A stretch of DNA of 22,851 bases, from positions 1 through 22,851 of IMG/VR virus record IMGVR_UViG_3300028025_001665. One strand, written 5' to 3'. Below, one piece after another: positions 783 to 20,582 of this stretch. A program made the translations under genes and the position numbers. Every line of letters begins with the position of its first letter. The stretch's first letter is position 1. Below the pieces are notes generated by a model. The model had not been told where the DNA came from, did no database searches, and saw nothing but the letters and a program-made list of their open reading frames with translations. Source of the stretch: a virus.

Positions 783-794
783 GATTTGTTCTTC

Positions 795-2231: not shown

Positions 2232-2236
2232 TTTTT

Positions 2237-3328: not shown

Positions 3329-3349
3329 TATAATTAGATTTAATTGTTA

Positions 3350-3357
3350 CAAAGTTA
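3350..3357 (-). promoter_or_regulatory. Possible Bacteroidota -7 promoter element before scaffold gene
   Basis: The 47-base gap between portal and scaffold genes contains TAACTTTG on the minus strand, an exact match to the Bacteroidota -7 consensus TAnnTTTG. It lies 21 bases upstream of the scaffold ATG. No TTTG -33 element occurs at the expected spacing; the nearest is about 29 bases upstream. It could raise scaffold and capsid expression, but a chance match is quite possible. Confidence 0.25.
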
Positions 3358-3375
3358 ATTATTATTTACTTACGT

Positions 3376-5805: not shown

Positions 5806-8024
5806 TATTTTATTATTTCGCTTCTGTTTCCACGATTATCGTATTTTACAAATTTAATACTTATTTTTGATTCCTTCTTTTCAGGTGTAAACATATACTT
5901 ACGAGTAGCCATAATAGCTAATCCTGAACTGATGGAGGCATCGTGTTTTGTTCTATTGTTAATATCAAATCGAGCCCAATCTTCTAGAGTCCTGGTAAAA
6001 TACATTGATCCCATAACGTCAGAGTCTCTATAAGTCCCCTCATTATCTAAACCAACGTACTCCTCGATATAAGACTCGATAGCTGCCGCGTGAGCCTGCT
6101 TAACGTCCTCAGATGAGTTAGGTATACCACCGAGCTCTAATTCGGTCTTAGACAGCTTAAACGTCTGCTTGTCGGGTCTATTCAATACATAACCACGGTA
6201 TCCCCTATTCTTAAAGTGATATAGTAGTCGGGCTTTGTTGTTCTCCGGTAAGATAGGCATTCCGTAGAATATACAAGCCATCAAAACCTCCTCAAAGAAT
6301 ATCTCTGCTGTTTGAGGTCTAGCCACATACTCTAAAAAGAATTCGTTCGTTGGTGCCTTCTCCATATGGAACTTAGTCAAACCATGCAATGCACCATTCG
6401 ATCCACCACCACCTACTACTCCTGAGATGTCATAGGGGTCACATCCAAACGCACCGATATGCTCGTTTGCTGGAAACTTGCGTCCGTTCTTATACACCAT
6501 TCGGTTCCTAAGTCCCTGCTCCGGGATCCACGATACATAGAACCTGCCCTTTTGATCTGGCGTCCAAATAACCTCACTGTCTTTAACTCCGCCTTTCCAA
6601 TGGAAATACCCTCTAGTAATGACTCGATCCTTAATCATTGAATCGTTGTAGTCAATCTGTTGGTATATCTTTGTCAAGTTGAATAACGACTGCTTGGACT
6701 CATCCCTAAATGCGTGTGACTCTGTGCGAGGGAACTGACGATAGAACTCATTGAGTGCATCTGAGTCAGACTTTAATGCCGCAACCTCATTGTTCCAATA
6801 GGTAATAACGCCATTGCTAATCATCTCTCCATCTACACCAACCACAGGTTTCTTTGGATCCTCGAATACCGGCCAACCGAACTCATCGATGTAACCCTCG
6901 TAGTTCCACTCCATCGGAATGAATAAGGCATACAACCCTGACTTAGTCTGACCATTGGCAGATCGTTGTCTTGGGTCGCTATCGTTGAATAGTTTCTTGA
7001 AGTTCTCACCACCTTTTGATAGTGCATTCGATGTTGATCCCATCATACACTTACCAATGATCCTAGATCCCAATCGGAGACACGTCTTGGTTACTCGCCA
7101 GTTATTGAGAATGTTCTCAGGCTTCTCCCATTTTCCGCTCTCGTCATGTACAAGTAGCAATAACTTCTCACCATCATAACTGTTGTCAGCTGTGTTCTTC
7201 CAGTCAATGGTAGTATCCAACCCTTCTATGTCATCCTCGCGCTCCTCATCCATATTCTTACGAGTGATCTTACTCGCAGGAACCCGGAAGGCTAACTCCG
7301 TCTTCGGGTTATCCATACCATCTTGGATCGGCTTGAAAAAGAAGGGATAATTTCTTACAATAGGCACAACCTTATCGGTAAACATCTTCTTGGCATCGGA
7401 TCCTGTTTTAGATAGGATTCCAAGACGAGAGTCACGGACAATTGTACCTTGATTTGATGTCTCAGCAGAAGACATAAATGAGAAACCTGAACGTCGGTTC
7501 TTTAGGTAACACATACCAAACGATCGATTGTCTGCCTTACATGCCTCCCAAAATATGTAGAATATCCGGTTGGACTCACGGAAGTCAGGTAGACCAACGT
7601 CAATCTTGGTCCACTGCAAGTACATATAGTGAGTACCGGTTATGTAAGTTGGCTTGCCGTTATTCATGAACCAATGTCCATGCTCACGTCGATCAAACTC
7701 TCTCTCGATACTATCTACATACTTTGATTTGAATGAGTTGTCCTTTCTGTTCCAATCAAATATTGACTTGATCTTTTGAAGCTCAGCAGGATACTCTTGG
7801 GCAACCCATCTATTGTTGGTGTTCTCTAATTCTTTTGGTGTGGCCGGAATAGCAATCCTTAGGCCGTTTATCTCGTACACGTCACCAATCGTTCCGTCCT
7901 TTGATATGACTATTAGGTCGTAGTCGGGGTGATAGCCGTAGTTCCAAGACTTATTCTTATTCTTAGCCACCACAGCTTGACGCTGTACATAGTTACTTAA
8001 TATGGAGTATAATTTATTTTCCAT
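5805..8024 (-). CDS. Terminase large subunit (block A)
   Basis: This is the ATP-driven DNA packaging motor with a C-terminal nuclease. I chose the ATG at 8024 (739 residues) because the longer reading frame begins with GTG at 8057 inside the upstream gene. The ATPase half has an unusual Walker A-like KNRRSGFS (residues 175-182), a Walker B LLLLVHDES (288-296) ending in the catalytic Asp-Glu, a GSTSNALSKGG coupling motif (about 329-339), and the conserved FPRTESHAF segment (431-439). The nuclease half begins with GCDPYD (527-532), where the Asp would bind metal. The atypical Walker A resembles forms I recall in large Bacteroidota phages. It overlaps the upstream gene by 11 bases and the portal by one. 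Confidence 0.92.
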   Translation of the reverse strand: MENKLYSILSNYVQRQAVVAKNKNKSWNYGYHPDYDLIVISKDGTIGDVYEINGLRIAIPATPKELENTNNRWVAQEYPAELQKIKSIFDWNRKDNSFKSKYVDSIEREFDRREHGHWFMNNGKPTYITGTHYMYLQWTKIDVGLPDFRESNRIFYIFWEACKADNRSFGMCYLKNRRSGFSFMSSAETSNQGTIVRDSRLGILSKTGSDAKKMFTDKVVPIVRNYPFFFKPIQDGMDNPKTELAFRVPASKITRKNMDEEREDDIEGLDTTIDWKNTADNSYDGEKLLLLVHDESGKWEKPENILNNWRVTKTCLRLGSRIIGKCMMGSTSNALSKGGENFKKLFNDSDPRQRSANGQTKSGLYALFIPMEWNYEGYIDEFGWPVFEDPKKPVVGVDGEMISNGVITYWNNEVAALKSDSDALNEFYRQFPRTESHAFRDESKQSLFNLTKIYQQIDYNDSMIKDRVITRGYFHWKGGVKDSEVIWTPDQKGRFYVSWIPEQGLRNRMVYKNGRKFPANEHIGAFGCDPYDISGVVGGGGSNGALHGLTKFHMEKAPTNEFFLEYVARPQTAEIFFEEVLMACIFYGMPILPENNKARLLYHFKNRGYRGYVLNRPDKQTFKLSKTELELGGIPNSSEDVKQAHAAAIESYIEEYVGLDNEGTYRDSDVMGSMYFTRTLEDWARFDINNRTKHDASISSGLAIMATRKYMFTPEKKESKISIKFVKYDNRGNRSEIIK

Positions 8025-8289
8025 TTCTAGTCTTGGCTCTACCCTCTGCCCATCCACCTTTACCTGCCGTTACCTCAGCTGGTTGGTCTTGTCTACTTTC
8101 CTCCTCCTCAATCTTTGTCAGCATATACATAGCATCCTCAAATGCCAAACGTTTAGCTGACGCAGCGTTCTTCATCTTATCGGCCGATATATCGTCCTCA
8201 GCATGTGTGATGATAGGAGACTTTAATACTTTGATCAGCTCATCAATCGCTTGCTTAGCTGCTTCTACAATCTCTATTTTTTTAGACAT
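8014..8289 (-). CDS. Small helical protein, possible terminase small subunit
   Basis: This 91-residue protein is short and mostly helical over residues 1-70, including ASAKRLAFEDAMYMLTKIEE, and ends in a flexible Gly/Lys/Arg-rich tail (GKGGWAEGRAKTRNGK). It sits immediately before the large terminase gene and overlaps it by 11 bases, where phages commonly encode the DNA-recognition small subunit. I do not see a clear helix-turn-helix, so the function is suggested by position, size and helical content only. It overlaps the preceding gene by 16 bases, consistent with one tightly coupled transcript. It could equally be an unrelated conserved protein. Confidence 0.7.
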   Translation of the reverse strand: MSKKIEIVEAAKQAIDELIKVLKSPIITHAEDDISADKMKNAASAKRLAFEDAMYMLTKIEEEESRQDQPAEVTAGKGGWAEGRAKTRNGK

Positions 8290-8831
8290 ATGTTCCGGTT
8301 ATACATTCGGTAAAGAATCTCATCGTCAATCTTAAACTCATACTCGCAGTCAGGTGTGTACGACACTATGTCTCCCTTCTCAACCTCATCTAGCTTGTCG
8401 TTCTTATAGACCAACTCACCCCACATTTGCTCTAGGCCACCCGTTTGATTGAACATCCGATCTTCCGATTCGATTGGTCTAACAAACACAAATGGCTCAG
8501 GTGCCTGCCATTCCTCACCTCTTTTGAATAGGTAGATCTGATCAGGCTCAGCAATAAATAGGTCTTCTGATAGGTGATGCCAACTGCTCTTTTGTCTACC
8601 CTTCATGTCGTAGTAGAACTTAAACACGTTGTGGTGAACACACACGGTGTCACCTGCTTGTATTGGACCATCGTAATATATAGGCACGGATACAACCTCA
8701 GCGAATCTATTGGATACGCGGTGGTCTTCCTGGGAGGTACTAATAATAAACTCGGAGTCTCCGAATTGTCTTATGTTGTCGTACCGCCTCAAGCCAACCG
8801 GCTTTATGATGAAGCAGTAGGGAGCTTTCAT
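8274..8831 (-). CDS. Tandem GroES-like (co-chaperonin-like) protein
   Basis: This 185-residue protein reads as two consecutive GroES-type units. The first (about 5-95) has FIIKPVG, then AEVVSVP, then IQAGDTVCVHHNVF. The second (about 112-185) has PFVFVRPI, then WGELVY, then VEKGDIVSYTP and FKIDDEILYRM. The strand pattern 'xxRPI … GxV … GDxV … IDGE-LYRM' is that of the GroES fold. Phage GroES-like proteins help host GroEL fold capsid subunits, so a role in folding the block A capsid is plausible but inferred. It starts with an ATG sharing a base with the upstream stop (TAATG) and lies in the small-gene run before terminase. A structural-domain search is needed to confirm the fold. Confidence 0.75.
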   Translation of the reverse strand: MKAPYCFIIKPVGLRRYDNIRQFGDSEFIISTSQEDHRVSNRFAEVVSVPIYYDGPIQAGDTVCVHHNVFKFYYDMKGRQKSSWHHLSEDLFIAEPDQIYLFKRGEEWQAPEPFVFVRPIESEDRMFNQTGGLEQMWGELVYKNDKLDEVEKGDIVSYTPDCEYEFKIDDEILYRMYNRNICLKK

Positions 8832-9082
8832 TAGAAATCTATTTTGTACTCTGTTGAGATTGGCATATTAGCCGAGAAGTTTTTCCAACAAACAATCGCG
8901 CCGTCCTGCATGATCCAAATAGAGATTGATCCATCATCATTCTTGATAATAGACTCGATCTCATACTCGTCTCGGAGAACGCGTTGTCCTACAACGTAGT
9001 GCATGCACTTCATGTAGTCAGGACCAACTGATATCTTTCTAATTAAATTCACCTGTTTGAAGGTTAACTTGTACGTCACCAT
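8831..9082 (-). CDS. Conserved small phage protein, function unknown
   Basis: The core (from about 9013 to the stop) reads MHYVVGQRVL…YEIESIIKNDDGSISIWIMQDGAIVCWKNFSANMP, a compact beta-rich pattern I recall from uncharacterised proteins beside terminases in environmental Bacteroidota phages. The start is uncertain. The ATG at 9082 (83 residues) has an AGGAGG 15 bases upstream but overlaps the previous gene by 44 bases. A GTG at 9052 overlaps by 14 bases, like neighbouring junctions, and an ATG at 9013 avoids overlap. The longest frame (ATG at 9136) overlaps by 98 bases and is unlikely. The stop shares a base with the next ATG. No function can be assigned. Confidence 0.65.
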   Translation of the reverse strand: MVTYKLTFKQVNLIRKISVGPDYMKCMHYVVGQRVLRDEYEIESIIKNDDGSISIWIMQDGAIVCWKNFSANMPISTEYKIDF

Positions 9083-9278
9083 ACTCGTTGTAGATCTCCT
9101 CCTGAACGGAAGATAGGTCGTGAGCAGCGATTTCAATGTTAGCCATTGACTGAGCCTTTTGAACTTTCAAACGCTCGAAATTAATCTCGATGTCTGCAAT
9201 GTTAAACTTAAGGTCTCTGAATTTTCTGTTAGCATCGATCAATCGATCTAGCTGTTCTTGTTTGATTTTTTTTGCCAT
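9039..9278 (-). CDS. Small coiled-coil protein, function unknown
   Basis: This 79-residue protein is almost entirely helical, with a heptad-like pattern from about residue 5 to 68 (for example LDRLIDANRKFRDLKFNIAD and EIAAHDLSSVQEEIYNEYGD) and a short tail. It begins with ATG after an A/T-rich leader and is the first gene of the block A run that continues into terminase and head genes. No enzymatic motif, signal peptide or membrane segment is visible. Small coiled-coil proteins of this sort can be assembly chaperones or structural parts, but nothing here decides the matter. Confidence 0.7.
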   Translation of the reverse strand: MAKKIKQEQLDRLIDANRKFRDLKFNIADIEINFERLKVQKAQSMANIEIAAHDLSSVQEEIYNEYGDVQVNLQTGEFN

Positions 9279-9289: not shown

Positions 9290-9691
9290 TTATAAAGATA
9301 TGTACCAAGTTGCGTTGGCGTGATTATATTGGAAACACACTGGTGTGTTTGCTGTTAATGCAGATGGAGCTCCTACTATTGTAGCTCCTGGAGATATCCA
9401 TGTAGTTGACCCTCGAGTAATTGTTGCCATAAGTACATATTTAGCTCCGTTTAAATTTGAATTAGATGCAGGAAGATAAATTGTAAATGTTGCGCCTGCT
9501 GTTCCTGTAAAGTATGTATTGGTTTTAATAACTGTATAAGAAGTTAACGCATCATTAGTAACAATTTGAGGTGTAGCATTCAATGCCAATAAAGCTTGTA
9601 CATTAAAGTTCTTTTGAGCTCCTGCCTCATCAGTACCAAATACTGTGCAATCTACATTTGGCGCTACTACGTTATAGTTATTTACTTTCAT
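9290..9691 (-). CDS. Small beta-rich protein, possible virion decoration or fibre component
   Basis: This 133-residue protein is rich in Thr, Ala, Asn and hydrophobic beta-branched residues, with alternating segments such as GTAGATFTIYLP and TWISPGATIVGAPSALTAN. The pattern suggests a beta-sandwich or fibre-tip domain. There is no signal peptide. It lies between the endolysin gene and the small genes before terminase. The composition resembles Bacteroidota phage fibre proteins, so a role as a decoration or receptor-binding accessory is plausible, but I recognise no defined family. The ATG at 9691 follows the endolysin stop by 22 bases. Confidence 0.75.
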   Translation of the reverse strand: MKVNNYNVVAPNVDCTVFGTDEAGAQKNFNVQALLALNATPQIVTNDALTSYTVIKTNTYFTGTAGATFTIYLPASNSNLNGAKYVLMATITRGSTTWISPGATIVGAPSALTANTPVCFQYNHANATWYISL

Positions 9692-9713
9692 ATCACAAAT
9701 TTACTAAAAATAA

Positions 9714-10286
9714 TTAAGGTCTGAACGTTTTATTATAATCCGATAATCGGTTCAACCATCCCTTGAGAAATTTCGCGTTCTTAGATCCCGGCCGACCAAT
9801 CGCTTTGAAGAATCGTTCGCGCTCTGCTATCAGTGCGTCAAACAACTTTGTTGGATTGATAGAATTTGCGGCCTTAATCGTATTATTTCCGATTATCCCA
9901 TCTTTATCTACCATAACTCCACAGTTAAGTATAGCTCGCTGCAATGTCATACCGGCCTGCTTAACACCACTTCCCCATGCGACACCTGTCACAATTATTG
10001 CAATATTTGTGACTTTAAACTGATCACCTTTAACACCATCCCAATAACCTTTCTTGAACACTTTGAACCAGTTCTCGTCAGACATATTAAAGAAATCGTC
10101 GTCGTTGTCCTTACCGAAGTACTGAACCCATGCAGCGTAAGTGATCCCCATGTTTGTATGGTAACCTGACTTTCCCTTGTAAGGGGTTGGACATGGATAG
10201 CTAGATGCTGAGTCGGATGTATCTCTAGATAGGCCGCCCTCCCATTTCTTTGTAAAGGCAATATATTTTTTGATTAGCTCTTCCAT
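9714..10286 (-). CDS. Endolysin, glycoside hydrolase family 108-type muramidase
   Basis: This 190-residue protein degrades host peptidoglycan at lysis. The N-terminus carries KWEGGLSRD, in which Glu16 of the E-G-G motif is the expected catalytic acid of the family 108 (N-acetylmuramidase) fold. NMGITYAAW follows at about 46-54. The C-terminal half contains LQRAILNCG and DGIIGNNTIKAAN (about 116-142), matching the peptidoglycan-binding region usually joined to this catalytic domain. The length fits the family. There is no signal peptide, so it should depend on the holin encoded immediately upstream, whose stop overlaps its start by 13 bases. Confidence 0.92.
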   Translation of the reverse strand: MEELIKKYIAFTKKWEGGLSRDTSDSASSYPCPTPYKGKSGYHTNMGITYAAWVQYFGKDNDDDFFNMSDENWFKVFKKGYWDGVKGDQFKVTNIAIIVTGVAWGSGVKQAGMTLQRAILNCGVMVDKDGIIGNNTIKAANSINPTKLFDALIAERERFFKAIGRPGSKNAKFLKGWLNRLSDYNKTFRP

Positions 10287-10726
10287 TTGTCGCTCTCATT
10301 TTTAAGCCCTGTGATGAAGTCCCTGAATGATTTTAGCATATCCTTTCCGGTAACATCCTTATAGCTCTCGTTCATGCTCTTTACTTCAATGAATACAAAG
10401 AATAATGCAACAGCTTTAGTGAGCAATAACTCTATCGATATGAAGTGAGATATGATGTCGCCTGCGATGAATCTCTCTACCAAGTAGAAGAATGCAATTG
10501 ATCCAGCATATATACCACACTTAACGCCTGTAGCAAGTGCCTTTGTACTTTGAATGATGTCGCCTATCTTAGCTGATGATCCTTCTTTTCGTCTGCTCTG
10601 AACAGATCTCCAAATACCAAAACCGAAGTCAAACCCTATAGAAATTAATGCTATTGTGACCAATGGGCCAATTGGCGCAAATAGCGTGATAAAGCTTGAC
10701 AAAATGATTACGGTGTTGGTTTTCAT
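10274..10726 (-). CDS. Holin-like membrane protein
   Basis: This 150-residue protein has three or four hydrophobic segments: two near the N-terminus (about 5-35), one about 75-90 (GIYAGSIAFFYLVERF), and one about 98-116 (LLLTKAVALFFVFIE). A positively charged loop (RSVQSRRKEG) separates the first pair from the rest, and the C-terminal 35 residues are charged and soluble. The EVKSMNESYKDVTGKD segment after the last helix is typical of Bacteroidota phage holins as I recall them. Its start overlaps the spanin stop as ATGA and its end overlaps the endolysin start, placing it in the centre of a three-gene lysis cassette. Holins time lysis by opening the inner membrane. Confidence 0.85.
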   Translation of the reverse strand: MKTNTVIILSSFITLFAPIGPLVTIALISIGFDFGFGIWRSVQSRRKEGSSAKIGDIIQSTKALATGVKCGIYAGSIAFFYLVERFIAGDIISHFISIELLLTKAVALFFVFIEVKSMNESYKDVTGKDMLKSFRDFITGLKNESDKWKS

Positions 10727-11151
10727 ATCGATATTTTAATTACTCTATACCCCGTATAGAGTATAACAAAGATAATCAAAAAAGCTAAAATGTTGTTGAC
10801 TAGCTTCTTCCAAAACGGATACTTCTCGTAGTACTTAACTGGTATCTTTCTATCTACAATTTTCGTGATGTAAATAGGATCACATTTCCCTTGGATGTAT
10901 ACCTTCTTCTCTTTTGGAACATACCATGTCTTAACAGTGATTCTATCTTTAGATATGACCACTGTATCGATAAGCTCCTTTAACGTCACCACAGTGTCCG
11001 TATGGACCTCAGGGACGTACAAGGTGATGGTATCACGAATGGTGATAGTATCTGAAGTGATCAAATAAGGATACTTCTCGATTAATCGGTTAAACCTCTT
11101 CGTCGGACTGCACGCTGTCAGCAGGAGCATTATTATTACTAGATGCTTCAT
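10723..11151 (-). CDS. Single-chain spanin (u-spanin): lipoprotein with C-terminal membrane helix
   Basis: This 142-residue protein would join the outer and inner membranes and fuse them at lysis. It starts with a lipoprotein signal, MKHLVIIMLLLTAC, with Cys14 as the predicted lipidation site. Residues about 25-110 alternate in a beta-strand pattern rich in Thr, Val, Asp and Ile, suiting a periplasmic domain. A single membrane helix (about 117-135, NILAFLIIFVILYTGY) follows, then a short basic tail. A lipobox at one end and an inner-membrane anchor at the other is the defining layout of a unimolecular spanin, as in phage T1 gp11. Its place directly before holin and endolysin supports the call. 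I found no separate Rz gene. Confidence 0.82.
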   Translation of the reverse strand: MKHLVIIMLLLTACSPTKRFNRLIEKYPYLITSDTITIRDTITLYVPEVHTDTVVTLKELIDTVVISKDRITVKTWYVPKEKKVYIQGKCDPIYITKIVDRKIPVKYYEKYPFWKKLVNNILAFLIIFVILYTGYRVIKISI

Positions 11152-11265: not shown

Positions 11266-11535
11266 TTACGAAATAATTGTAACTCCGATTGCTTCAGCAA
11301 CGTACTCGTTTACTACCGAGTTATCACGTCCCCATTCAGCGAATTGTTCTTCCGTCATTTGGTAGCGTCCATCGGTTAAGATTTTGCCCTCATCGGTAAG
11401 CAATCGGTAATAGGTACTTGCGGTTGTAGCATCCGTTAAAAATGCTTCTACTAGTACTGTTAAGAATGTTGCAGTACCTTCGTTAAGTGGATATACGATT
11501 GGTTGAATCGCTACTCCGTTTGTGTTTGTTTCCAT
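11266..11535 (-). CDS. Small phage protein downstream of tail fibre, function unknown
   Basis: This 89-residue protein starts with ATG two bases from the homing endonuclease stop. The central part, AFLTDATTASTYYRLLTDEGKILTDG, is followed by RYQMTEEQFAEWGRDNSVVNEYVAEAIGV. The second half resembles short proteins encoded next to tail fibre genes in Bacteroidota phages. There is no signal sequence or membrane helix. If the endonuclease gene is an insertion, this gene originally followed the fibre directly, so it may be a fibre-associated or assembly protein. That is inference from position. Confidence 0.72.
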   Translation of the reverse strand: METNTNGVAIQPIVYPLNEGTATFLTVLVEAFLTDATTASTYYRLLTDEGKILTDGRYQMTEEQFAEWGRDNSVVNEYVAEAIGVTIIS

Positions 11536-11536: not shown

Positions 11537-12097
11537 TTATAGTTTTACTAAATTATTTACTTTATTTAAAAATGAATCTACTTGCTCGCCAAATAGAAAC
11601 TTATATCCTTTTACGTTATAAAAACCCATGCTCTTGCAGGACTTTTGTATGTCTTTAGGTCCACAAGAAATCGCCTTAGCTGCGTCTGTGATTGAATCAT
11701 ATTTAGCTACTAAAAACATATTGTCTCTTGTGTACATATATACAGGCTTAACTTTACCAATAAGTCTTTGATAGTCTGAAATTTTCTTTTTATATTCATC
11801 TGTTCTTACTACTCCTTTAGGACTACAACCTTCCCTGCACATATTGCAACAAAGCTCATTGTCTACGTGTTCAAATAAATATTTTGTCTCTATTGAATTT
11901 AATTCCTCTTTTGAGCATTCGTGTATTACTTCAAATTTAGGCTCTCCATATTTATTAAAACAATTTTGAAGCCTGCTATTTGAATGAATTCCTTTTGTTA
12001 ACTCTCTTTTGTGTTGAGTGAATCTTCTATTTGTATCTACCGCTTGACCTATGTAATAATGATTATTACTAAATGTCATTTTATATATTCCTATCAT
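11537..12097 (-). CDS. GIY-YIG homing endonuclease with NUMOD-like DNA-binding region
   Basis: This is a selfish endonuclease gene rather than a virion component. I start it at the ATG at 12097, which overlaps the fibre stop as ATGA and places the GIY motif at residues 3-5; the protein is 186 residues. The catalytic domain shows GIYKMT, YYIGQ (14-18), the Arg-bearing NRRFTQHK (23-30) and a Glu-bearing SIETKYLFE. A Cys-rich stretch (CCNMCREGC), an SPKG…EYKKKISDYQR segment, and a repeat-like SITDAAKAISCGPKDIQKSC region follow, matching the modular NUMOD DNA-binding elements of phage homing endonucleases. It probably targets a fibre or lysis-region sequence in related phages. I see no intron around it. 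Confidence 0.9.
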   Translation of the reverse strand: MIGIYKMTFSNNHYYIGQAVDTNRRFTQHKRELTKGIHSNSRLQNCFNKYGEPKFEVIHECSKEELNSIETKYLFEHVDNELCCNMCREGCSPKGVVRTDEYKKKISDYQRLIGKVKPVYMYTRDNMFLVAKYDSITDAAKAISCGPKDIQKSCKSMGFYNVKGYKFLFGEQVDSFLNKVNNLVKL

Positions 12098-13710
12098 AAT
12101 AGCAATGCCCAACCTGTTGATTTGTAAATATAAAGACCTTCTGTTCCATCAGTTTGATAAACCTGAAGCCCAACAGCTGGAGAGGCAATAGCGGTACGCT
12201 GTGCTTGAGTTTGTCGTGGGGGTAAAAAGCCTTTTGTCGTAGAGTCCGCTTGTAATATTGCTGAAGCTACCGTATTTGCGTTTGTTCCTACTCTTAAAAA
12301 TGTGCTTATTGATACTGCACCTCCAAAATGATTTCTATCGTTTATCGTATTGTAAAATGCACCATTAAAAAATAATTGAGTTCCTCCAACTGTCAACGCT
12401 CCACTCACCCTCGCAGTACCATTAACGTCAAGTTGGTATCCTGCGTCTGTGGTGGTGTTGATTAGGACGTTGCCCGTTGCTGACTTTAATCTCATTGCAG
12501 TTGTAGCACCTGCGGCAACACGAAATAAAATATCATTTGCACCATCCAAATAAGTGTTGTTATCACTAAACATTTGTAGAATGGTAAAAGCTGCACCTCC
12601 CGTATATCTTGAGCGAATACCTTGAGCATTGGAAAGTTGAATAGCACCCGAAACAATTTCTAGTTTTTCAGATGGTGATGAAGTTCCCACACCTAAACGA
12701 GCATTCGTATTATCCCAAAACAAATTAGCCGATTCGCTCACCACATTTCCCGTACCTTCAAACAATACCCGTCCAACTGTACCCGAAGTGATTGCAGTCG
12801 TACCGATTGTGATTCCTGTTGAAATTGTGAACGTTCTGTTCGCGGTTAAATCTTGAGTAACGCCGTTAATTGTTAGCGTTCTAGAATCCGGAACCGGTGT
12901 GAATCCAAGTGCGTTTTGTTTACCGTTGAAAATTGTCCAATCCGCCGCGGAAAGATAGCCATCAACGGCCGTTGTAGCTTGCGGAATTGAAAGGGTTCGA
13001 TCCGCTGTTAAATCCCCGCCACCGGTCAAAGGTGCGGTTGTGGAAATTGTGCGCGTTTTTGGAGTTAATCCGCTTAAATCTTGATCCCCTGTATTGGATC
13101 CGGAAAGCGTTGTAATTCCAAGTTTTGTTTTTATTGAGGCCGTCGTTTCGTCCCCTGTATTTGTCCCGCTGTTGATTCCGGTAATGTCCGAAGTCAAGGC
13201 GATTGTTCCGCTTTGATTAGGTAAATAATGATCGCGCGTTTGAGTTAACAAAGTCAAAAATAAATTTGATTGAATTGTATCGGTTAAATGCAATTGCAAA
13301 AATCCATCCTCAACAACAAAAAGTTTGTGGCCGTCCGCGTCCTCAATATGAAAGTTTCCATCCGTGTAATGAATGGAGCCAAAGTTTCCATTTGGTTCGT
13401 CATAAAGGAAAATCTTTCGAACGCTTAAATCGTGCTCGCCGAGATTAACGTCCTGAGTTGCGCCCGAATAAGGAACTAAATCATCGAGCGCGTTTTGTAA
13501 ATCTGTTTGATCCGCAAGTGTTCCCGTAATATCGCCCCAATTAACAGCAACAGCCGCGCCAAGTTCAACGTAAGCATTTGAAGTATTGTTCCAATAATAC
13601 GCAACGTTCGCCGTTTGATCAATGTAAATAACGCGAGTTTTTCCAAGCGCTGGGAATTGCGATCTGTTTACAAATGGGCTTACTTGCGTAGGTATGTTTA
13701 TGTTACTCAT
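12094..13710 (-). CDS. Tail fibre / receptor-binding protein, possibly chimeric
   Basis: This 538-residue protein would recognise the host surface. The start is the ATG at 13710, overlapping the upstream stop as ATGA; a longer frame starts with TTG. The N-terminus (to about 60) includes RVIYIDQTANVAYYWNN, a virion-anchor type seen in Bacteroidota fibres. The middle holds repeat-like motifs: SGTNTGD, SGSNTGD, LTGGGDLTADRTL, DGYLSAADWTIFNGKQNAL and NGVTQDLTANRTFTIS. The C-terminal half has LFWDNTNARLGVGTSSPSEKL, INTTTDAGYQLDVNGTARV and ADSTTKGFLPPRQTQAQR, which recur in fibre tips of Bacteroidota phages and serve trimerisation or as a tip domain. Codon texture appears to change near 12800, with GCG/CCG-rich codons before it and fewer after. 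Confidence 0.85.
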   Translation of the reverse strand: MSNINIPTQVSPFVNRSQFPALGKTRVIYIDQTANVAYYWNNTSNAYVELGAAVAVNWGDITGTLADQTDLQNALDDLVPYSGATQDVNLGEHDLSVRKIFLYDEPNGNFGSIHYTDGNFHIEDADGHKLFVVEDGFLQLHLTDTIQSNLFLTLLTQTRDHYLPNQSGTIALTSDITGINSGTNTGDETTASIKTKLGITTLSGSNTGDQDLSGLTPKTRTISTTAPLTGGGDLTADRTLSIPQATTAVDGYLSAADWTIFNGKQNALGFTPVPDSRTLTINGVTQDLTANRTFTISTGITIGTTAITSGTVGRVLFEGTGNVVSESANLFWDNTNARLGVGTSSPSEKLEIVSGAIQLSNAQGIRSRYTGGAAFTILQMFSDNNTYLDGANDILFRVAAGATTAMRLKSATGNVLINTTTDAGYQLDVNGTARVSGALTVGGTQLFFNGAFYNTINDRNHFGGAVSISTFLRVGTNANTVASAILQADSTTKGFLPPRQTQAQRTAIASPAVGLQVYQTDGTEGLYIYKSTGWALLL

Positions 13711-14363
13711 GTCCAATTTATGTTAATCTCAAAGTCCTCCATTGCCGGGACCTCGATTGTTTCCTGTAATTCATCCTCAACAAAAACGTTGATTGTTTGA
13801 TCCTCCAAAGTATAACTTGATCCGCTTTCGATTAACTCCGAAAATGATTGATTTGAATTAGTTACCAGGGCCGGAGGACATGGCTCAATTTCTGAGCTCG
13901 CGCCGTTTTCAAAATCGTAAGATCCGAAAGGAATATCACACCAATTTTGCAGGTCAAAAATGTTTGCCGTTAAATTCATGGACCAACCCGCGACAACGTC
14001 CTGAGATCGCTCGACAAATGGCTCCGTTGAATGCTGAGCATCGAGCGTTAAATCCTCAAATCTTTCCTGGCGTAATGTAATGTCAATATCTCGTAAGATT
14101 TGCAAACAATCCGAATGAACTTCAATGATGCTTCGATTTGAATCGAAAATATATTTATCACAAACGGTAATCGTCATTGAAAGATTGACCGTTTTTTCAT
14201 TCATTGATCCAGGTGAAAGCATCACATTAAGCAATGGATAATTTGCCGGGGTTTCCTGGTTTAAAGCGCTGAGAAAATCACCGAAAAAAAAGCCGTTAAT
14301 TTGCTTATGCTGTTGGGCAATTATCGCAAATTCTTTGACTAGCTGATTTATCGTTAATTCCAT
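13707..14363 (-). CDS. Probable tail terminator / neck protein (block B)
   Basis: This 218-residue protein follows the connector gene and precedes the fibre. The N-terminal 160 residues contain a helix (LVKEFAIIAQQHKQINGFFFGD) and then a beta-rich domain with VNLSMTITVCDKYIFDSN and a SDCLQILRDID helix, a layout I recall in short 'minor tail' or tail-terminator proteins of Bacteroidota phages. The last 50 residues (VFVEDELQETIEVPAMEDFEININW) look like an added small beta domain. The function is inferred from layout and location between head-tail connector and fibre genes. Confidence 0.7.
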   Translation of the reverse strand: MELTINQLVKEFAIIAQQHKQINGFFFGDFLSALNQETPANYPLLNVMLSPGSMNEKTVNLSMTITVCDKYIFDSNRSIIEVHSDCLQILRDIDITLRQERFEDLTLDAQHSTEPFVERSQDVVAGWSMNLTANIFDLQNWCDIPFGSYDFENGASSEIEPCPPALVTNSNQSFSELIESGSSYTLEDQTINVFVEDELQETIEVPAMEDFEININWT

Positions 14364-14411
14364 TTAAGTAACTCTTTAATTTTTCAATCGTTAGGGCGCT
14401 CGGCTTGTAAT

Positions 14412-14915
14412 TTACACGATCCAATTTTTTCGGAATCCCCTTTTCTCTTTCAATACGTTTTCCTTGTTGCATTCGCAATCTGTATATAGTGGATAATCGT
14501 TTCCGTTATCATCTTTCAAAAATCCGATTAATCTTTCTTTGTAAAAATACGCATCTTTTCTCAGGCGGTCCCGCATTGGATTGCGTTGCTCGTTTGACAT
14601 GGCTTGCAAATTTGCATCCTGCAAAAATCCGGTTGCCTTGTTTGTGATCTTTTCGGTTGTGTAATCGATCATCCTGTAATCAACAAACGCGATCAAGGCC
14701 GGTAAAACGTACTCATCCATCAAAAGCAAAGTTTCCGGAGTGAAAGTATTTGTTTGCACCCTGTTTAATAGGTCCCTAAAAAGACATGTTCCGAGGGCCG
14801 TTTGTATGTGGATGTCCTGGCTTCGCGCGATTGCAACGGTTATTGTTTTCGCGTCAACATTTCCATGCGTTAAACCGCGTCGGATTACCTCCTCAACTGA
14901 TATTAGATAATTCAT
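14412..14915 (-). CDS. Head-tail connector-like protein (block B)
   Basis: This 167-residue, largely helical protein begins 3 bases after the portal stop. It contains SQDIHIQTALGTCLFRDLL (about 31-49) and MDEYVLPALIAFVDYRMIDY (about 66-85), both characteristic, as I recall, of a Bacteroidota phage family of adaptor proteins (DUF6712-like). These are structurally similar to the head-tail connectors that bind below the portal and extend the DNA channel. The C-terminus (YTDCECNKENVLKEKRGFRKN) is charged and contains two Cys. Its position between portal and the putative tail terminator is canonical. Confidence 0.78.
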   Translation of the reverse strand: MNYLISVEEVIRRGLTHGNVDAKTITVAIARSQDIHIQTALGTCLFRDLLNRVQTNTFTPETLLLMDEYVLPALIAFVDYRMIDYTTEKITNKATGFLQDANLQAMSNEQRNPMRDRLRKDAYFYKERLIGFLKDDNGNDYPLYTDCECNKENVLKEKRGFRKNWIV

Positions 14916-14918
14916 TTT

Positions 14919-16955
14919 TTAGCTTTTTTTAACAATTGATTGAAACCATAAATGTCGACACCATGGCGTAGTAACTCCGGTTTCCGGATTGGTATAAAAC
15001 CCACCTTTGTAAACCCAAACATCGCGATCAACTCGGCTTGAAATTGTGTTAATTTCCTCACGTGTATAAAGTCGATTCAAATCAATCAAGTTCGCGCAAA
15101 ATTCACGGCTCCCGGACATAGCGTCGGGAACATCGGTTCTCACCTGGTAACTATATCGAACCTCGAACTCCGGAACGTTTGCAGCCTCGCTGTCGATCAA
15201 GCGATCTCCTAAACTTGAAAGCTCGCCTCCGGTTACTAAACCCCATTCAGTAAGGCGCGAAATTGAAAGCGCAACATCTTTGATCTTTAATCCTGTAGCT
15301 TGCGCGATTCCGTTCCCGTCCTCACCTTTGTTTAACAGGGCTAAAATATCTTTGTCAATGTTTGAGATTCCGATTGTAATTTCTCCGATTGTAGCGAAAA
15401 CCTCATCATGTTTTTTGTAAACTTTTTCACTATCTGAATTCCATTCAATCGGAATTTTTGCGAACTCTTCAAAGTCCGAAGCGCTTTCACCAAATTCAGC
15501 GAAAACCGTTAAATCATCTTTGCTGAAAGAGTGATTTCCTTTGCATGTGCTAAAACCCGTTGTCGTAACCCCGACCATTTTTTGGGCTTGTGCTTGATCA
15601 ATTGAAGGGAACGAAGCCAGGATAATCTCAACGGCGCTATTTGAGTCGATTTCGCCAAGTTTAGCCTTGGCAACAACGTCCACAAGTGAGGCTATTTGCG
15701 CACCGTTTAAAGCTGTTTTGGATACATCGGTAACAGTTGCATCAATTACAGGCGTTACCGCTGTTGTTGGCGCTGTTTCCGTAGCTGTTGGCGTTGGTGC
15801 GTTGTTTATTGTTATGCTACTTTCAGGCGTTGCATTGTTTACAGCGTCCTCAATTGGTTTTACTTCTACTAATTGGACCTCACCAACAAAGCCGGAAAGT
15901 TTTGCCATTTTATTAAGCATCCAATTTATGCGGGCCTGGCGTTGCATGACGTAAGTTTTTTTGAATACCTCAAACAATTGAGCGCTTTCAGCTGCATTAA
16001 ATGAGCCCTGCTGCATTACTCCGAATAATGTGGGGCTAACTACTCCATGAGCAATTAAAATGTTTTGAAGCGTCGCGGTATTCGTAACCGTGTAACGCTT
16101 ATCGAGATCATTCCCATTCAAAGGCATTACCATAGGAGCCCGATCTTTGCCCTCCGCAAAAGTGATAATTATTTCACCGGCATTTTCGGCGCCCTGGCTT
16201 GGCGCTTTAATGTCGTTTTTGATTTTTTGAATTTCCTCCTCCGTTTCTGGTTCGCCATCTGTAAAGACAATCATTGTACCGGATGAAAATGAGTTTTGGA
16301 TTAAGGCGTTATTGTATTTGTTTAAATTCCAATCCGTTTCAATTGCTGAGATCCCGGAATAATAGGGAGGCTTTGGATAAACGCCCAACTCTTTGCGGTT
16401 CTTTTTTGTTGGATCCTTGTAATAAATAAAGAATGATCCGGATGTTTGGTTTTCATCTAAAACCGAATAGCTTCTATAGCCTGTTTTTTCCGGATCCTGG
16501 TTCTGAGCGTTCCAATCGTTTGATAAATAAACAATCGTTTGATCGATATTAAATCGACACGCATCCATTGGCAAATGTTCCCACTTAACAACGCGCGTTC
16601 CCTCCATGTCATAGGTTCCCTTTACGATAAAACCGCCGTATCTTTCGCCATCCTCACAAATTGCCTCCGCAATTTCGTTAATGTCAAAATCGCTGTATTC
16701 ATTCAATAAAAAAGCCTCCAAATCACCGGAAAGAATTTCAACGCCACCGCCGGCAATATAGCGAACTTTGTTTTTTATGATTCCCCCGTGAACCGGTGAA
16801 CCCTCCGTTAAATCATTAAGGAAAAAAGGATAGTCATTTTTTCGGCCCCATTTTATAAAGCCTTTGGTATCTTTTTCCTCCGTTGGTTTTGGCGCCACCT
16901 TTGCGAAGCTGGTGCGCTCAATTGTTTTCGGGGTTCTAGTTTTCGAGTTCTCCAT
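14919..16955 (-). CDS. Portal protein with C-terminal winged-helix-like and Cys/His extension (block B)
   Basis: I start this at the ATG at 16955 (678 residues), which overlaps the upstream stop by 20 bases; the longer frame runs deep into the previous gene. Residues about 30-370 match PBSX/SPP1-type portals: GFIKWGRKNDYPFFLNDL near the N-terminus, IIKNKVRYIAGGGVEI, ISAIETDWNLNKYNNALIQN, and VSPTLFGVMQQGSFNAAES. A Pro/Thr/Ala linker (about 370-405) leads to LNGAQIASLVDVVAKAKLGE (about 416-435), a helical segment common in portal C-termini. Residues about 531-578 resemble a small winged-helix fold, and about 612-675 carry SGSREFC and TPWCRHLWFQSIV with conserved Cys and His. It is unrelated to the block A portal. 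Confidence 0.85.
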   Translation of the reverse strand: MENSKTRTPKTIERTSFAKVAPKPTEEKDTKGFIKWGRKNDYPFFLNDLTEGSPVHGGIIKNKVRYIAGGGVEILSGDLEAFLLNEYSDFDINEIAEAICEDGERYGGFIVKGTYDMEGTRVVKWEHLPMDACRFNIDQTIVYLSNDWNAQNQDPEKTGYRSYSVLDENQTSGSFFIYYKDPTKKNRKELGVYPKPPYYSGISAIETDWNLNKYNNALIQNSFSSGTMIVFTDGEPETEEEIQKIKNDIKAPSQGAENAGEIIITFAEGKDRAPMVMPLNGNDLDKRYTVTNTATLQNILIAHGVVSPTLFGVMQQGSFNAAESAQLFEVFKKTYVMQRQARINWMLNKMAKLSGFVGEVQLVEVKPIEDAVNNATPESSITINNAPTPTATETAPTTAVTPVIDATVTDVSKTALNGAQIASLVDVVAKAKLGEIDSNSAVEIILASFPSIDQAQAQKMVGVTTTGFSTCKGNHSFSKDDLTVFAEFGESASDFEEFAKIPIEWNSDSEKVYKKHDEVFATIGEITIGISNIDKDILALLNKGEDGNGIAQATGLKIKDVALSISRLTEWGLVTGGELSSLGDRLIDSEAANVPEFEVRYSYQVRTDVPDAMSGSREFCANLIDLNRLYTREEINTISSRVDRDVWVYKGGFYTNPETGVTTPWCRHLWFQSIVKKS

Positions 16956-17292
16956 TGTATATTTTATCAATTGCGTTTTCTGAATAATCGTGATCGATTG
17001 GATCCGTTCCAAATACTTCGGCGCGTCCGATCTCACAAATTACGCCTGTTTGTTCCTCCGTTATTTTGTACGTGTATTGTCCCTCAAATGGAAACGTAAG
17101 ATTCACGCCCTCCTCCAGGATAAACAAATCGTATCTGGGAACGCTTTGAGAAATATTGTTAAGCGTTGCCGTTACCACCGCGCGCGATTGCGAGTGAGTG
17201 AATTCCCATTCAAAGATTGGGTTTAAAACTGTTGTTAATTCAGATGCCGTTACCGTCAATTGGTTGACTTGGCCCTTTTTTATTTTCAACAT
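16936..17292 (-). CDS. Small conserved structural-region protein (block B)
   Basis: I take the ATG at 17292 (118 residues), preceded by AAAAGAA, over the in-frame ATG at 17319. The start of the protein, MLKIKKGQVNQLTVT, and the later EWEFTH, RYDLFILEEG, FPFEGQYTYKI and EIGRAEVFG segments form an even beta-rich pattern that I recognise as common in Bacteroidota phage head-tail regions, where its role is not defined. It overlaps the preceding small gene by 53 bases and the portal start by 20. It may be a head decoration or neck component; I cannot go further. Confidence 0.75.
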   Translation of the reverse strand: MLKIKKGQVNQLTVTASELTTVLNPIFEWEFTHSQSRAVVTATLNNISQSVPRYDLFILEEGVNLTFPFEGQYTYKITEEQTGVICEIGRAEVFGTDPIDHDYSENAIDKIYNGELEN

Positions 17293-17431
17293 TTCTTTTG
17301 ATTTTTTTCTCGAACACATCGAATTTTAAAGCCTTGTAAACGCCCTCATTTCCCTCGGAAATTGTAAACCATTTACCAAAATTTTCATGTTTGATTTTCA
17401 TCCCCAAACATTCCTTTCTAATCTTTGCCAT
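17240..17431 (-). CDS. Small protein, function unknown
   Basis: The frame is open from 17455, but that ATG sits inside the terminator hairpin. I use the ATG at 17431 (63 residues); an ATG at 17401 (53 residues, MKIKHENFGKWFTISEGNEG) is also plausible. The core is basic, with FDVFEKKIKRNVENKKG, and the C-terminus is Pro/Gly-rich. An exact TAnnTTTG match (TACCTTTG, 17442-17435) lies just upstream but without a -33 element; if it were a promoter, the 17401 start would be favoured. The gene overlaps its downstream neighbour by 53 bases. No function is apparent. Confidence 0.5.
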   Translation of the reverse strand: MAKIRKECLGMKIKHENFGKWFTISEGNEGVYKALKFDVFEKKIKRNVENKKGPSQPIDGNGI

Positions 17432-17441
17432 TTTCAAAGGT

Positions 17442-17474
17442 ATTAAAAAAGGCAAAGCGTAAAACTTTGCCTTT
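17442..17474 (-). terminator. Terminator behind the putative tail tube gene, probably bidirectional
   Basis: On the minus strand AAAGGCAAAG pairs perfectly with CTTTGCCTTT around a seven-base loop, and the 3' arm continues into a run of six T residues. On the plus strand the 3' arm is also followed by a T run, so it may act in both directions. It begins about 20 bases after the stop of the 175-residue gene. Confidence 0.75.
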
Positions 17475-17494
17475 CATTTTTTTAAATTCAATGA

Positions 17495-18022
17495 TTAAAC
17501 CGCTTGTCCTAATAATGTATTCCAAACAGACGCCGCAACATCTGGGACCTCATTATCCTCCATTGATGTCATAACGATTGTATGTCCGTTACGATCGGCT
17601 ACAGCTGTTCCCGTTCCTGCCTCTGAAGCTTCGCGGATCTGTAAACCTTGATCCAATCCAAGTGCGATAATATCGCCATTTCTTTTCTCAACTAATGCAA
17701 CTAATTCATTTTGCGCTAACAAATGAATTTCAGCGCGAAGCTCTTTCGTGTCATTGTTAAGGATCATTGAAAGAGTTTGCTCATAATACAAAGCACCGTT
17801 ATCATTTGCGCGAACCGGATAAGTTGCGTTTGATAAATCTCTTTTCAATTTGTAGTGGTAGGTGTCGCCTGTTACCGTCATTGCAGTGATTTCATTCGCT
17901 ACGATTGTTGGATTACTTGCGCCCGTTAATTGATCTTTGGTAAAGAATAAAACCGATTTGATCCCGCCTTTTCCAACGGTACAAATTCTGTCATTCCATC
18001 CAGCTGATAAAGTACAACTCAT
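17495..18022 (-). CDS. Probable major tail tube protein (block B)
   Basis: This 175-residue protein begins MSCTLSAGWNDRICTVGKGG and contains GIKSVLFF (about 20-27), YEQTLSMILNNDTKELRAEIHLLAQNELVALVEKRNGDIIALGLD (about 79-123), and DRNGHTIVMTSMEDNEVP (about 142-159). The beta-strand/helix/beta-strand pattern, the GGI near the start, and the 'DRNGxTxxxTGxE' ending match a family of Bacteroidota phage tail tube-like proteins as I recall them. It is the first gene after the capsid gene, with hairpins on both sides, which suits a highly expressed structural protein. A head decoration protein is the main alternative. Confidence 0.7.
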   Translation of the reverse strand: MSCTLSAGWNDRICTVGKGGIKSVLFFTKDQLTGASNPTIVANEITAMTVTGDTYHYKLKRDLSNATYPVRANDNGALYYEQTLSMILNNDTKELRAEIHLLAQNELVALVEKRNGDIIALGLDQGLQIREASEAGTGTAVADRNGHTIVMTSMEDNEVPDVAASVWNTLLGQAV

Positions 18023-18042
18023 GTTTTTTATTTTAAGGGTTA

Positions 18043-18062
18043 AAAGGGGGCGAACCCCCTTT
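18043..18062 (-). terminator. UUCG-capped hairpin after block B major capsid gene
   Basis: On the minus strand AAAGGGGG pairs with CCCCCTTT around a TTCG tetraloop, 14 bases after the capsid stop. The T run beyond the stem is short, so it may be an attenuating terminator or a stabilising 3' end rather than a full stop. Confidence 0.5.
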
Positions 18063-18075
18063 GAAAATTAATTGA

Positions 18076-19038
18076 TTAGTCTAAAACAAAAACACCCATT
18101 TCATTCAAGTAAGGCACCTGAACACCCGCTTTGAATTTGATTCGGATATAAAGTTTATCATCATCCTGAGAATACCATAATTCAAAGTTACTTGAATCAG
18201 ATGCTAAATCCGTTCCAAAGGTAAACGCTGAACGTTTTCCGATGAACACGCGAGAATCACCATTCAATCCTGGAACACGCTCAACAACTAAGTCGGTACC
18301 TGGTAAGATAACGCTTGTCATTGTTGCCATGTCATTCGGCGAGTAATGAAAGAAATTAAGATCAACTAAATTCTTGATTAAGAAATTAAAGTTCTCACGT
18401 CCACAAAATGCGATTTTCTCCGGGCTGTCCGCGATTGCTGCAGGCATTGACGTAAACATGTCATAGAATAAATCGTAAGCATTACCCGCGTTGATTGCTG
18501 TTGCGTTTGAAGGGTTCAAATTCGCCGCGCCATTTGCAACGGTGATAATTGAAGCAAATCCGTTCATGAATGCAAGGTTTCCTGAACCTGTCGTTTTGTT
18601 ACCTCTCCAAATTAACTTGTCTAATTCCAAAGCATGTAAAGACAATAAATAACTTGTGATTTGTTGCTCAAAAGGTAGCTCTTTATTTTGAGCCATTGCG
18701 CCATTTGGTAACGCTAATTGAGTCCAAAATCCAACTAGGTCATCATTACAAAATCCTTTTTTGAATCCAATCGGTTCAACTGTGATTTGACGATCCGAGA
18801 AAATTGTATTTCCTAAATCTGTCATGTCGCAATCAGCTGTTTGGTAAATAACCTCATCTGAAAGCAATTTTAATTTTTCTGATCCTTTAACGCCTTCTTG
18901 CGTTTTGATCAATTGAAGCGTGCGCGCTTCAGATACTTGGCGAACAATAAGTTCGTTTCTTTGCTCATCTACATAAGCTCCCAAATCGCTCACATCGTAA
19001 GCAAATTTGTCTTTGATAATTTGTTTTAAACCAGCCAT
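18076..19038 (-). CDS. Major capsid protein (block B, HK97-type)
   Basis: This 320-residue protein is the likely shell subunit of the block B head. Its ATG has the A-rich leader AAAAAAGAAAAA. The N-terminus (MAGLKQIIKDKFAYDVSDLG) leads to a helix (RNELIVRQVSEARTLQLIKTQEG), followed by beta segments and SYLLSLHALELDKLIWRGN (about 147-165). NAGNAYDLFYDMFTSMP and PEKIAFCGRENFNFLIKNL fit an A-domain. VILPGTDLVVERVPGLNG and ELWYSQDDDKLYIRIKFKAGVQVPYLNEMGVFVLD form the typical HK97-fold end. Upstream protease and scaffold genes support the role. It shares no recognisable sequence with the capsid protein at 795-2231. Confidence 0.85.
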   Translation of the reverse strand: MAGLKQIIKDKFAYDVSDLGAYVDEQRNELIVRQVSEARTLQLIKTQEGVKGSEKLKLLSDEVIYQTADCDMTDLGNTIFSDRQITVEPIGFKKGFCNDDLVGFWTQLALPNGAMAQNKELPFEQQITSYLLSLHALELDKLIWRGNKTTGSGNLAFMNGFASIITVANGAANLNPSNATAINAGNAYDLFYDMFTSMPAAIADSPEKIAFCGRENFNFLIKNLVDLNFFHYSPNDMATMTSVILPGTDLVVERVPGLNGDSRVFIGKRSAFTFGTDLASDSSNFELWYSQDDDKLYIRIKFKAGVQVPYLNEMGVFVLD

Positions 19039-19067
19039 TTTTTTCTTTTTTAATGGGTTAATAAAAT

Positions 19068-19919
19068 TTATTTTTTCAATGAATCAAGCATTCTTTTTTG
19101 ATTAGCATTAAACTCGGTTGATTCGATTCGAGTGAAACGCTCATTTTCTTTTGATTTGTCGCTCGGTGCGTTTGCTACTTTTTCAAAGCGTCCTTTGATC
19201 TCAGCAAATTCTAAAGCCTGTTTTTCGATTTGTTCGGATAGTTCACCAACAATTGCGCTAACTTGTTCAACTACATTGAACACGCCGTTTGTGATCTCCT
19301 TTGCCTCAGCTACCGCCGCGCTCATCTCCTCTGTGGATGCTTGAACTTGTGCGGGATCTGTTGGCGCTGCCTCATCCAAAAACATTCTTACAACTCCGGC
19401 GCCATCAACTAGGAATCTTTTTCCCTCCGCTGTTTCGTATTCGCCAGCCATTACGCTATAAACGTCGGTTGTTTCGCCGTATGTATAAGAATACGTCAAC
19501 GCGGTTCCAACTTCAATTGTATCTTGATCAACAGTCATGGACCATTTGGAAACCTCCATGATTTGCGCAAAATGCAAAATTTCCTTTTTCGAAAAAACTT
19601 CCGCTTTTGTTTCCGCTGCTCCTTCGTCTCCTGCTCCGTCTTTTGATAATCCTGTTTCCTCAATCACCTCAACGATGATTCCTTCAGCATCTAAAACAAT
19701 GCTTTTTCCTGCAAAGTCGCCCGTCAACATGTGGGTTCCTTCTGGAGCCGGCACGCTCGTTTCTCCATCAACTACAAAAACCGCCACACCTGGAGCAAGA
19801 TCACCCTCCCAAGTTAAAACAGTTCCATCCTCCAAAGTTGACTCGGAAAACTTTCCGGTTGTTATTTTCGCTTTGATCTGATTCATCAAGCTGAAAATTG
19901 TTTCAAGTTTCTTTTTCAT
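19068..19919 (-). CDS. Scaffold-like head protein with duplicated beta domain (block B)
   Basis: This 283-residue protein has two similar beta-rich units. The first spans about 22-86 (LEDGTVLTWEGDLAPGVAVF … GKSIVLDAEGIIVEV) and the second about 126-181 (IEVGTALTYSYTYGETTDVY … GKRFLVDGAGVVRMF). Between them is a charged linker, and residues about 195-283 form a helical, coiled-coil tail (VSAIVGELSEQIEKQALEFAE). It lies between the protease and capsid genes, the standard place for a scaffold. The beta units resemble a repeat I recall in Bacteroidota prophage scaffold-region proteins; whether they are packaged or removed by the protease is unknown. Confidence 0.75.
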   Translation of the reverse strand: MKKKLETIFSLMNQIKAKITTGKFSESTLEDGTVLTWEGDLAPGVAVFVVDGETSVPAPEGTHMLTGDFAGKSIVLDAEGIIVEVIEETGLSKDGAGDEGAAETKAEVFSKKEILHFAQIMEVSKWSMTVDQDTIEVGTALTYSYTYGETTDVYSVMAGEYETAEGKRFLVDGAGVVRMFLDEAAPTDPAQVQASTEEMSAAVAEAKEITNGVFNVVEQVSAIVGELSEQIEKQALEFAEIKGRFEKVANAPSDKSKENERFTRIESTEFNANQKRMLDSLKK

Positions 19920-19946
19920 AAAATTTTTGATTTCTTGTATATTGTG

Positions 19947-20564
19947 TTAAAGTGTTTCTATTAATTTAGTCAATTCCATAATTAACAGATCAAACTCATC
20001 CGGATCCGCTTTGAATCCGTTGTAAGTTGAGCCCGTTTCGTAAAGGGCAAAAACGCCCTCAATGGAAAAGCCTTTAAAATCTCCGGCCTTTGCTTTCTCG
20101 TATACATCCGCGTTTAAACATTTGTAACTAGCAATCGCGGTCCCATCGCTTTCGTCCTTAAATCGCTCCGGAGCCGTGAACCCGTTTGTTTCATCAATCA
20201 CATAAATCATTGTCATGAAAATATCATTGACAATTTCTTTATTGTTATGCTCGATGTTTACCGAATTGAAAGTTTGGCGCTGAGCCATATCCAAAACGAT
20301 GTCTTTGATTGATTGCTTTCCAAATTTCACATAATATTCCTCTTTTGTATCTTTGTTAAATCGATAAATCGGAACATCGCAAGCGATCATTACACCGGTA
20401 ATTGTTTGCTCATCGTCGTTAAAAAAGTATTGAGGCTCAACTTTGGAAAATGTTTCAAACATCCTTTCATGTGCCGGTTGTTTAACCAGGGAATTGAAAG
20501 TTATTTTCGTTTCATCATCGTTTAAATCAATTCCAATTTCGTAAAGTGGTAAATCTTTCATCAT
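19947..20564 (-). CDS. XkdF-like prohead serine protease (block B)
   Basis: This 205-residue protein probably cleaves the scaffold during head maturation. NSVNIEHNN places a catalytic-type His at residue 106, and GFSIEGVF places the nucleophilic Ser at residue 167; that His-then-Ser order matches PBSX XkdF-type proteases. Other family features include an N-terminal YEIGIDLNDDETKITFNSLV strand set, LVKQPAHE, and the ACDVPIYRFN strand. It begins MM, with the second ATG also possible. It is encoded directly before the scaffold and capsid genes, as expected. Confidence 0.85.
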   Translation of the reverse strand: MMKDLPLYEIGIDLNDDETKITFNSLVKQPAHERMFETFSKVEPQYFFNDDEQTITGVMIACDVPIYRFNKDTKEEYYVKFGKQSIKDIVLDMAQRQTFNSVNIEHNNKEIVNDIFMTMIYVIDETNGFTAPERFKDESDGTAIASYKCLNADVYEKAKAGDFKGFSIEGVFALYETGSTYNGFKADPDEFDLLIMELTKLIETL

Positions 20565-20582
20565 GTTTAAAGTGTTTTTATG

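What the first reader, a model, noticed from the sequence alone, without database searches (positions are those of the whole stretch)
12700..13000. Sequence-texture change inside the tail fibre at a shared motif
Upstream (N-terminal) codons in the fibre favour GCG, CCG and GAT-C patterns like block B, while the C-terminal half looks like block A and the lysis genes. The change seems to fall near the NGVTQDLTANRTFTIS segment, which recurs in many Bacteroidota phage fibres. Such a motif could act as a homology patch for real recombination, or could mislead an assembler.
Basis: partly seen in the sequence, partly recalled or inferred. Interest (0 to 1): 0.6.

Follow-up and report, generated by a model that had tools for sequence, protein, structure and literature searches.

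The report
Phage tail fibre spliced from two
The tail-fibre gene in this metagenome contig really does switch from one phage's DNA to another's at a short stretch shared by many phages, and the contig as a whole joins two unrelated phages, probably by an assembly error, in a gene where natural swapping is already well known.

Summary
Codon usage and k-mer content change inside the fibre gene (12094-13716, minus strand). Codons 1-275 match block B; codons 276-540 are neutral (permutation p < 0.0002; best split 12,939, ML switch 12,702). At DNA level the switch falls at 12,816/12,817: against a family of fibre alleles the window differs at about 17 of 60 nt just upstream and 0 of 38 nt just downstream, inside a conserved patch (12,676-12,880). 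Upstream DNA belongs with block-B phages of about 30 kb (86% identity to L170 from 13,489). Downstream is a fine patchwork of fibre-tip, GIY-YIG and '89' alleles, then block-A podovirus DNA from about 11,290 down. Block-A terminase and block-B capsid never co-occur in 20 relatives; the window alone has both head modules, so it is almost certainly a fusion of two phages. The join lies between 11,290 and 13,489, most likely near 12,816. Assembly chimera is likelier than a living hybrid, because a single crossover leaves two head modules, but no reads were available. Modular tail fibres are known; specific here are a roughly 130-bp patch conserved beyond its protein and a homing endonuclease beside the fibre. 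Interest is modest.

The parts
1..9278 (-). Block A: podovirus-type head module (g1, major capsid/virion protein, scaffold-like, portal, large terminase, small genes)
   Evidence: PHROG hits for portal, terminase and virion protein; relatives are Flavobacterium elemo phages, Maribacter Panino and Cellulophaga phages; 94.6% DNA identity to L082 over 3378-10787
9290..11151 (-). Lysis cassette (133 aa, endolysin, holin, 142 aa) belonging to block A
   Evidence: Same order next to block A in L176, L183-L186, L193, L198; endolysin PHROG, holin Pfam just under cut-off
11266..11535 (-). Gene '89', follows fibre genes in many phages; block-A-like DNA ends inside it near 11,290
   Evidence: L198 identity 98-100% at 11,100-11,250, 90% at 11,250, 66-76% after 11,300; other loci take over
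11537..12112 (-). GIY-YIG homing endonuclease between fibre stop and '89' start; absent there in most relatives, present in L021 and L294
   Evidence: Pfam GIY-YIG 1.6e-6; PHROG homing endonuclease 4.3e-21; empty sites in L001, L011, L062, L012
12094..13716 (-). Tail fibre gene, 540 aa, in one frame across the breakpoint
   Evidence: ORF; PHROG tail protein 6.5e-6
13474..13716 (-). Fibre aa 1-81: anchor, colinear with block B
   Evidence: 85.9% DNA identity to L170 from 13,489 through block B; L162, L165, L167, L172 matches also stop at aa 77-81
12817..13473 (-). Fibre aa 82-300: shaft modules with B-like codon usage
   Evidence: Codon score -19 for aa 81-183 and -22 for aa 184-275; the aa 80-185 module also follows a B-type anchor in L168
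12676..12880 (-). Conserved DNA patch shared by many phage fibres
   Evidence: 59-77 loci align here against 5-10 beside it; synonymous codons conserved 0.77-0.85 at aa 279-296 against 0.48-0.65 in most of gene 89
12779..12816 (-). 38-nt core identical in 11 distinct sequences of different contigs; allele switch at its upstream edge (12,816/12,817)
   Evidence: About 17/60 mismatches upstream versus 0/38 in the core against L001, L015, L065 and others
12396..12486 (-). Second shared patch in the fibre tip, further candidate junction
   Evidence: 46-74 loci align here, close to none just after
13707..22851 (-). Block B: second head and tail module (218 aa, 167 aa, portal, capsid-like, protease, tape-measure-like)
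   Evidence: Relatives L162-L172; capsid-like protein 66-87% in 8 contigs; portal PHROG, XkdF-type protease Pfam

Best explanation
The contig joins two unrelated Bacteroidota phages: a podovirus of about 60 kb (block A plus its lysis cassette) and a phage of about 30 kb (block B). The texture change is a junction between two fibre alleles at 12,816/12,817, inside a DNA patch that many fibre genes share. Most likely both parents carried the patch and the assembler crossed from one to the other inside the fibre region. The same patch probably also serves natural exchange of fibre tips, which is why it is shared. Shown: the switch, the patch, and that A and B modules do not co-occur in relatives. 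Inferred: that the A/B join is at this patch rather than elsewhere in 11,290-13,489, and that it arose in assembly.
For: Codon and k-mer change. Sharp allele switch beside an identical 38-mer. Block-A terminase in 12/12 A contigs and 0/8 B contigs; block-B capsid in 8/8 B and 0/12 A. B contig G002 has its own terminase. Block-A relatives L198 and G008 have fibres with a different N-terminus (MQV[IV]DA.GNMFGYD). Relatives' contigs tend to stop in or near the fibre region: L168 ends inside the patch, L082 ends at 10,787, and 7 of 56 patch copies lie within 220 nt of a contig end against 2.2 expected (p 0.006). A single crossover keeps both head modules, which a successful receptor-binding swap would not.
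Against: No reads, so assembly error is not shown. The longest exact match across the patch is 38 nt, short for the late k-mer rounds of modern assemblers, and the true parents were not found. The contig-end excess is weak at other distances (100 nt p 0.08; 500 nt p 0.23). C-side codon usage is neutral, not A-like. Several other breakpoints exist (11,290; 11,500; 12,400-12,486), any of which could hold the A/B join. A natural B-type fibre (L170) also loses its B signature towards its C-terminus. An anchor resembling the window's is not confined to block B: A-type Cellulophaga phages match aa 11-92 at 43%.
Confidence: 0.6

Rival explanations
1. The fibre is a naturally mosaic block-B fibre, its tip, the endonuclease and gene 89 included; the join to block A (assembly or other) lies downstream, inside gene 89 near 11,290.
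For: Patch and fibre-89 order are found mostly in B-like phages of about 30 kb; block-A DNA identity falls inside gene 89; L168, a B relative, has anchor, shaft and patch in one fibre; L170 shows a similar weaker codon change.
Against: The strongest composition break is at 12.70-12.94 kb, and the tip, endonuclease and gene 89 are neutral rather than B-like.
Confidence: 0.27
2. A real recombinant or cointegrate phage genome with both head modules, formed by homologous crossover at the patch.
For: Frame is kept; the patch is a likely natural exchange site; a B contig encodes a RecT-like annealing protein, of the class shown to recombine diverged phage DNA (PMC3945230).
Against: No relative among 20 contigs of 23-66 kb carries both modules; a single crossover would join the two genomes and leave duplicate capsid and portal systems.
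Confidence: 0.08
3. The texture change reflects protein-domain constraint, not a different origin.
For: Shaft and tip domains differ in structure and composition.
Against: Scores are conditioned on amino acid; other fibres lack so strong a change; the allele switch is seen at synonymous sites within one conserved motif.
Confidence: 0.03

Closest known systems
Modular tail-fibre and tailspike mosaicism (PMC10684548)
   Same: Anchor, shaft and tip modules occur in different combinations across phage lineages, some at high identity.
   Different: Here the exchange point is a DNA patch conserved at synonymous sites, and this contig also fuses two head modules.
Homology-driven phage mosaicism by Rad52-like recombinases (De Paepe et al. 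2014, PMC3945230)
   Same: Short homologous stretches at the borders of exchanged fragments; a B relative encodes a RecT-like protein.
   Different: That work is on E. coli phages; no recombination was measured here.
Flavobacterium elemo phages, Maribacter phage Panino, Cellulophaga phage Calle_1
   Same: Block-A portal 48-49% identical over 99% of its length in elemo and Panino.
   Different: In the window, block A and its lysis genes are followed by a fibre with a block-B anchor and by block-B head genes.
Nonlabens phages P12024S/L
   Same: The only isolate phages with a recognisable block-B portal (25% over 44%).
   Different: Distant; block B is much closer to uncultured contigs L162-L172.

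Membership tests
Chimeric metagenome contig | Parts whose relatives are consistently separate genomes | tested here: met
   A terminase 12/12 A and 0/8 B contigs; B capsid 0/12 A and 8/8 B
Chimeric metagenome contig | Junction at sequence shared by both parents | tested here: inconclusive
   Shared patch with a 38-nt identical core, but the true parents were not found
Chimeric metagenome contig | Read coverage or pairing breaks at the junction | not testable with these tools
   No reads available
Modular mosaic tail fibre | Conserved N-terminal anchor tied to the virion type, with exchangeable distal parts | tested here: met
   Most block-B relatives match only about aa 1-81; the aa 81-183 module occurs behind different N-termini in L001, L214, L215, L216, L168
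Modular mosaic tail fibre | Receptor binding by the distal part | not testable with these tools
   Needs experiment
Elemo-like podovirus (block A) | Homologous portal, terminase and capsid genes in the same order | tested here: met
   Portal against isolate phages; order in uncultured relatives
Elemo-like podovirus (block A) | Own fibre upstream of the lysis cassette with the N-terminus seen in close relatives | tested here: not met
   L198 and G008 start MQV[IV]DA.GNMFGYD; the window fibre has the block-B anchor. L084, a less close A relative, has another N-terminus
GIY-YIG homing endonuclease | GIY-YIG domain and insertion next to an otherwise intact empty site | tested here: met
   cleavage not tested

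The most novel reading that the evidence does not exclude
The contig is a true hybrid phage genome that carries two complete, unrelated head modules joined through a shared fibre-gene patch.
Probability: 0.06. Interest if true: 0.7.

Novelty: new member of a known kind. Interest (0 to 1): 0.3.

Why it matters
It flags a public viral contig that probably should not be treated as one virus, and shows a specific way such errors can arise: a fibre-gene DNA patch shared across unrelated phages. The patch itself, conserved at synonymous sites among contigs from many metagenomes, marks a likely exchange point for receptor-binding tips in Bacteroidota phages.

Tried and rejected
A scan for contigs carrying the window's own version of the motif (TINGVTQDLTANRTFTI) found none, so the N-side parent allele was not identified. 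A scan of bacterial genomes with the patch gave only weak or very short hits, in Bacteroidota and various other phyla, with no clear prophage of either parent. Contig-end clustering at the patch was tested and is only suggestive, since it depends on the distance chosen. The start of gene 89 was tested as a second DNA-conserved border; only its first 8 codons stand out, which translation signals could explain. Structure prediction was not run because a monomer model of a probably trimeric fibre would say little about the breakpoint. The idea that domain constraint explains the texture change was rejected because the switch is seen at synonymous sites.

Full report
The window is a whole linear viral contig of 22,851 bases with all main genes on the minus strand. 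It holds two head modules. Block A (1-9278) has a virion protein, portal and large terminase related to Flavobacterium elemo, Maribacter and Cellulophaga phages. Block B (13707-22851) has a second portal, capsid-like protein and XkdF-type protease and is related to contigs of about 30 kb. A lysis cassette, gene '89', a GIY-YIG endonuclease and the fibre lie between them.

The observation. Codon models conditioned on amino acid separate the blocks well. The fibre is B-like up to about codon 275 and neutral after it. The change-point statistic is 4.80, not reached in 5000 permutations, with eight other long genes at 2.74 or less. A Markov model flips in the same place. In eight other fibres scored with the same models only L170 gives a significant, weaker change, 3.22.

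The fine breakpoint. Fibre nt 841-1020 align at DNA level to 59-77 fetched loci, with far fewer on both sides. Against a family of alleles (L001, L005, L015, L021, L058, L065 and others) the window differs at 16-18 of 60 nt in 841-900 and at none of 38 nt in 901-938. Among themselves the alleles that share the core are 93-98% identical in that upstream stretch, so the window is the recombinant one. Its synonymous codons agree with the wider family at 0.17-0.50 for aa 279-300 and 0.74-0.84 for aa 301-312. The switch is therefore at 12,816/12,817.

Which side belongs to what. Upstream, DNA identity to L170 is 86% from 13,489 through block B, and other B relatives also stop matching at aa 77-81. 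The shaft (aa 82-300) is B-like in codon usage, and L168, a B relative, has anchor, shaft module and patch in one gene, its contig ending in the patch. A related anchor is also seen at 43% in A-type Cellulophaga phages, so the anchor fold alone does not assign the gene; the continuous DNA match to block B does. Downstream, block-A DNA is followed with confidence from position 1 to about 11,290 through L082 and L198. Between 11,290 and 12,816 the best match changes every few hundred bases (L021, L008, L325, L005, L294, L001), often at 95-100%. The patch is most common in B-like phages of about 30 kb. So the fibre change is one of several breakpoints in a mosaic fibre region.

Fusion. Block-A terminase is in 12 of 12 A-type contigs and none of 8 B-type; block-B capsid is in 8 of 8 B-type and none of 12 A-type. 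G002, a B contig, has its own terminase and a RecT-like protein. Block-A fibres in L198 and G008 have a different N-terminus. The window is the only sequence seen with both head modules.

Mechanism. The simplest account is that the assembler crossed between two phages in the fibre region, where unrelated phages share near-identical DNA. A natural single crossover would leave two head modules, whereas a useful fibre-tip swap needs two crossovers. Contig ends near the patch are somewhat more common than expected (7 against 2.2 within 220 nt, p 0.006), though this depends on the distance chosen. Natural exchange in this region is very likely: tip and shaft modules appear behind different N-termini in other contigs. 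The GIY-YIG endonuclease between fibre and '89', with empty sites in relatives, could drive co-conversion of its flanks; that is inference from other homing endonucleases, not shown here.

Comparison. Mosaic receptor-binding proteins are well documented (PMC10684548), and so is homology-driven exchange between diverged phage sequences (PMC3945230). The details added here are the patch with conserved synonymous codons (0.77-0.85 at aa 279-296, against mostly 0.48-0.65 in gene 89) and this particular, probably chimeric, record.

Noticed in passing
11537-12112: A GIY-YIG homing endonuclease in the low-GC stretch (about 0.32-0.34) sits exactly between the fibre stop and the start of gene '89'; relatives L001, L011, L062, L012 lack it, L021 and L294 have it.
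   Followed up: partly
11266-11535: Gene '89' follows fibre genes in many unrelated phages and has no Pfam or PHROG match; its first 8 codons are almost invariant at DNA level.
   Followed up: partly
L298/L310 (IMGVR_UViG_3300042458_000289): This 31,066-base contig carries the patch near both ends on the same strand (527 and 30,884), so its ends may lie in a repeated patch.
   Followed up: no
8274-8831: Block A encodes a GroES-like co-chaperonin (PHROG 7.7e-18), and relative G008 encodes a GroEL-like protein (L402:9063-10631).
   Followed up: no
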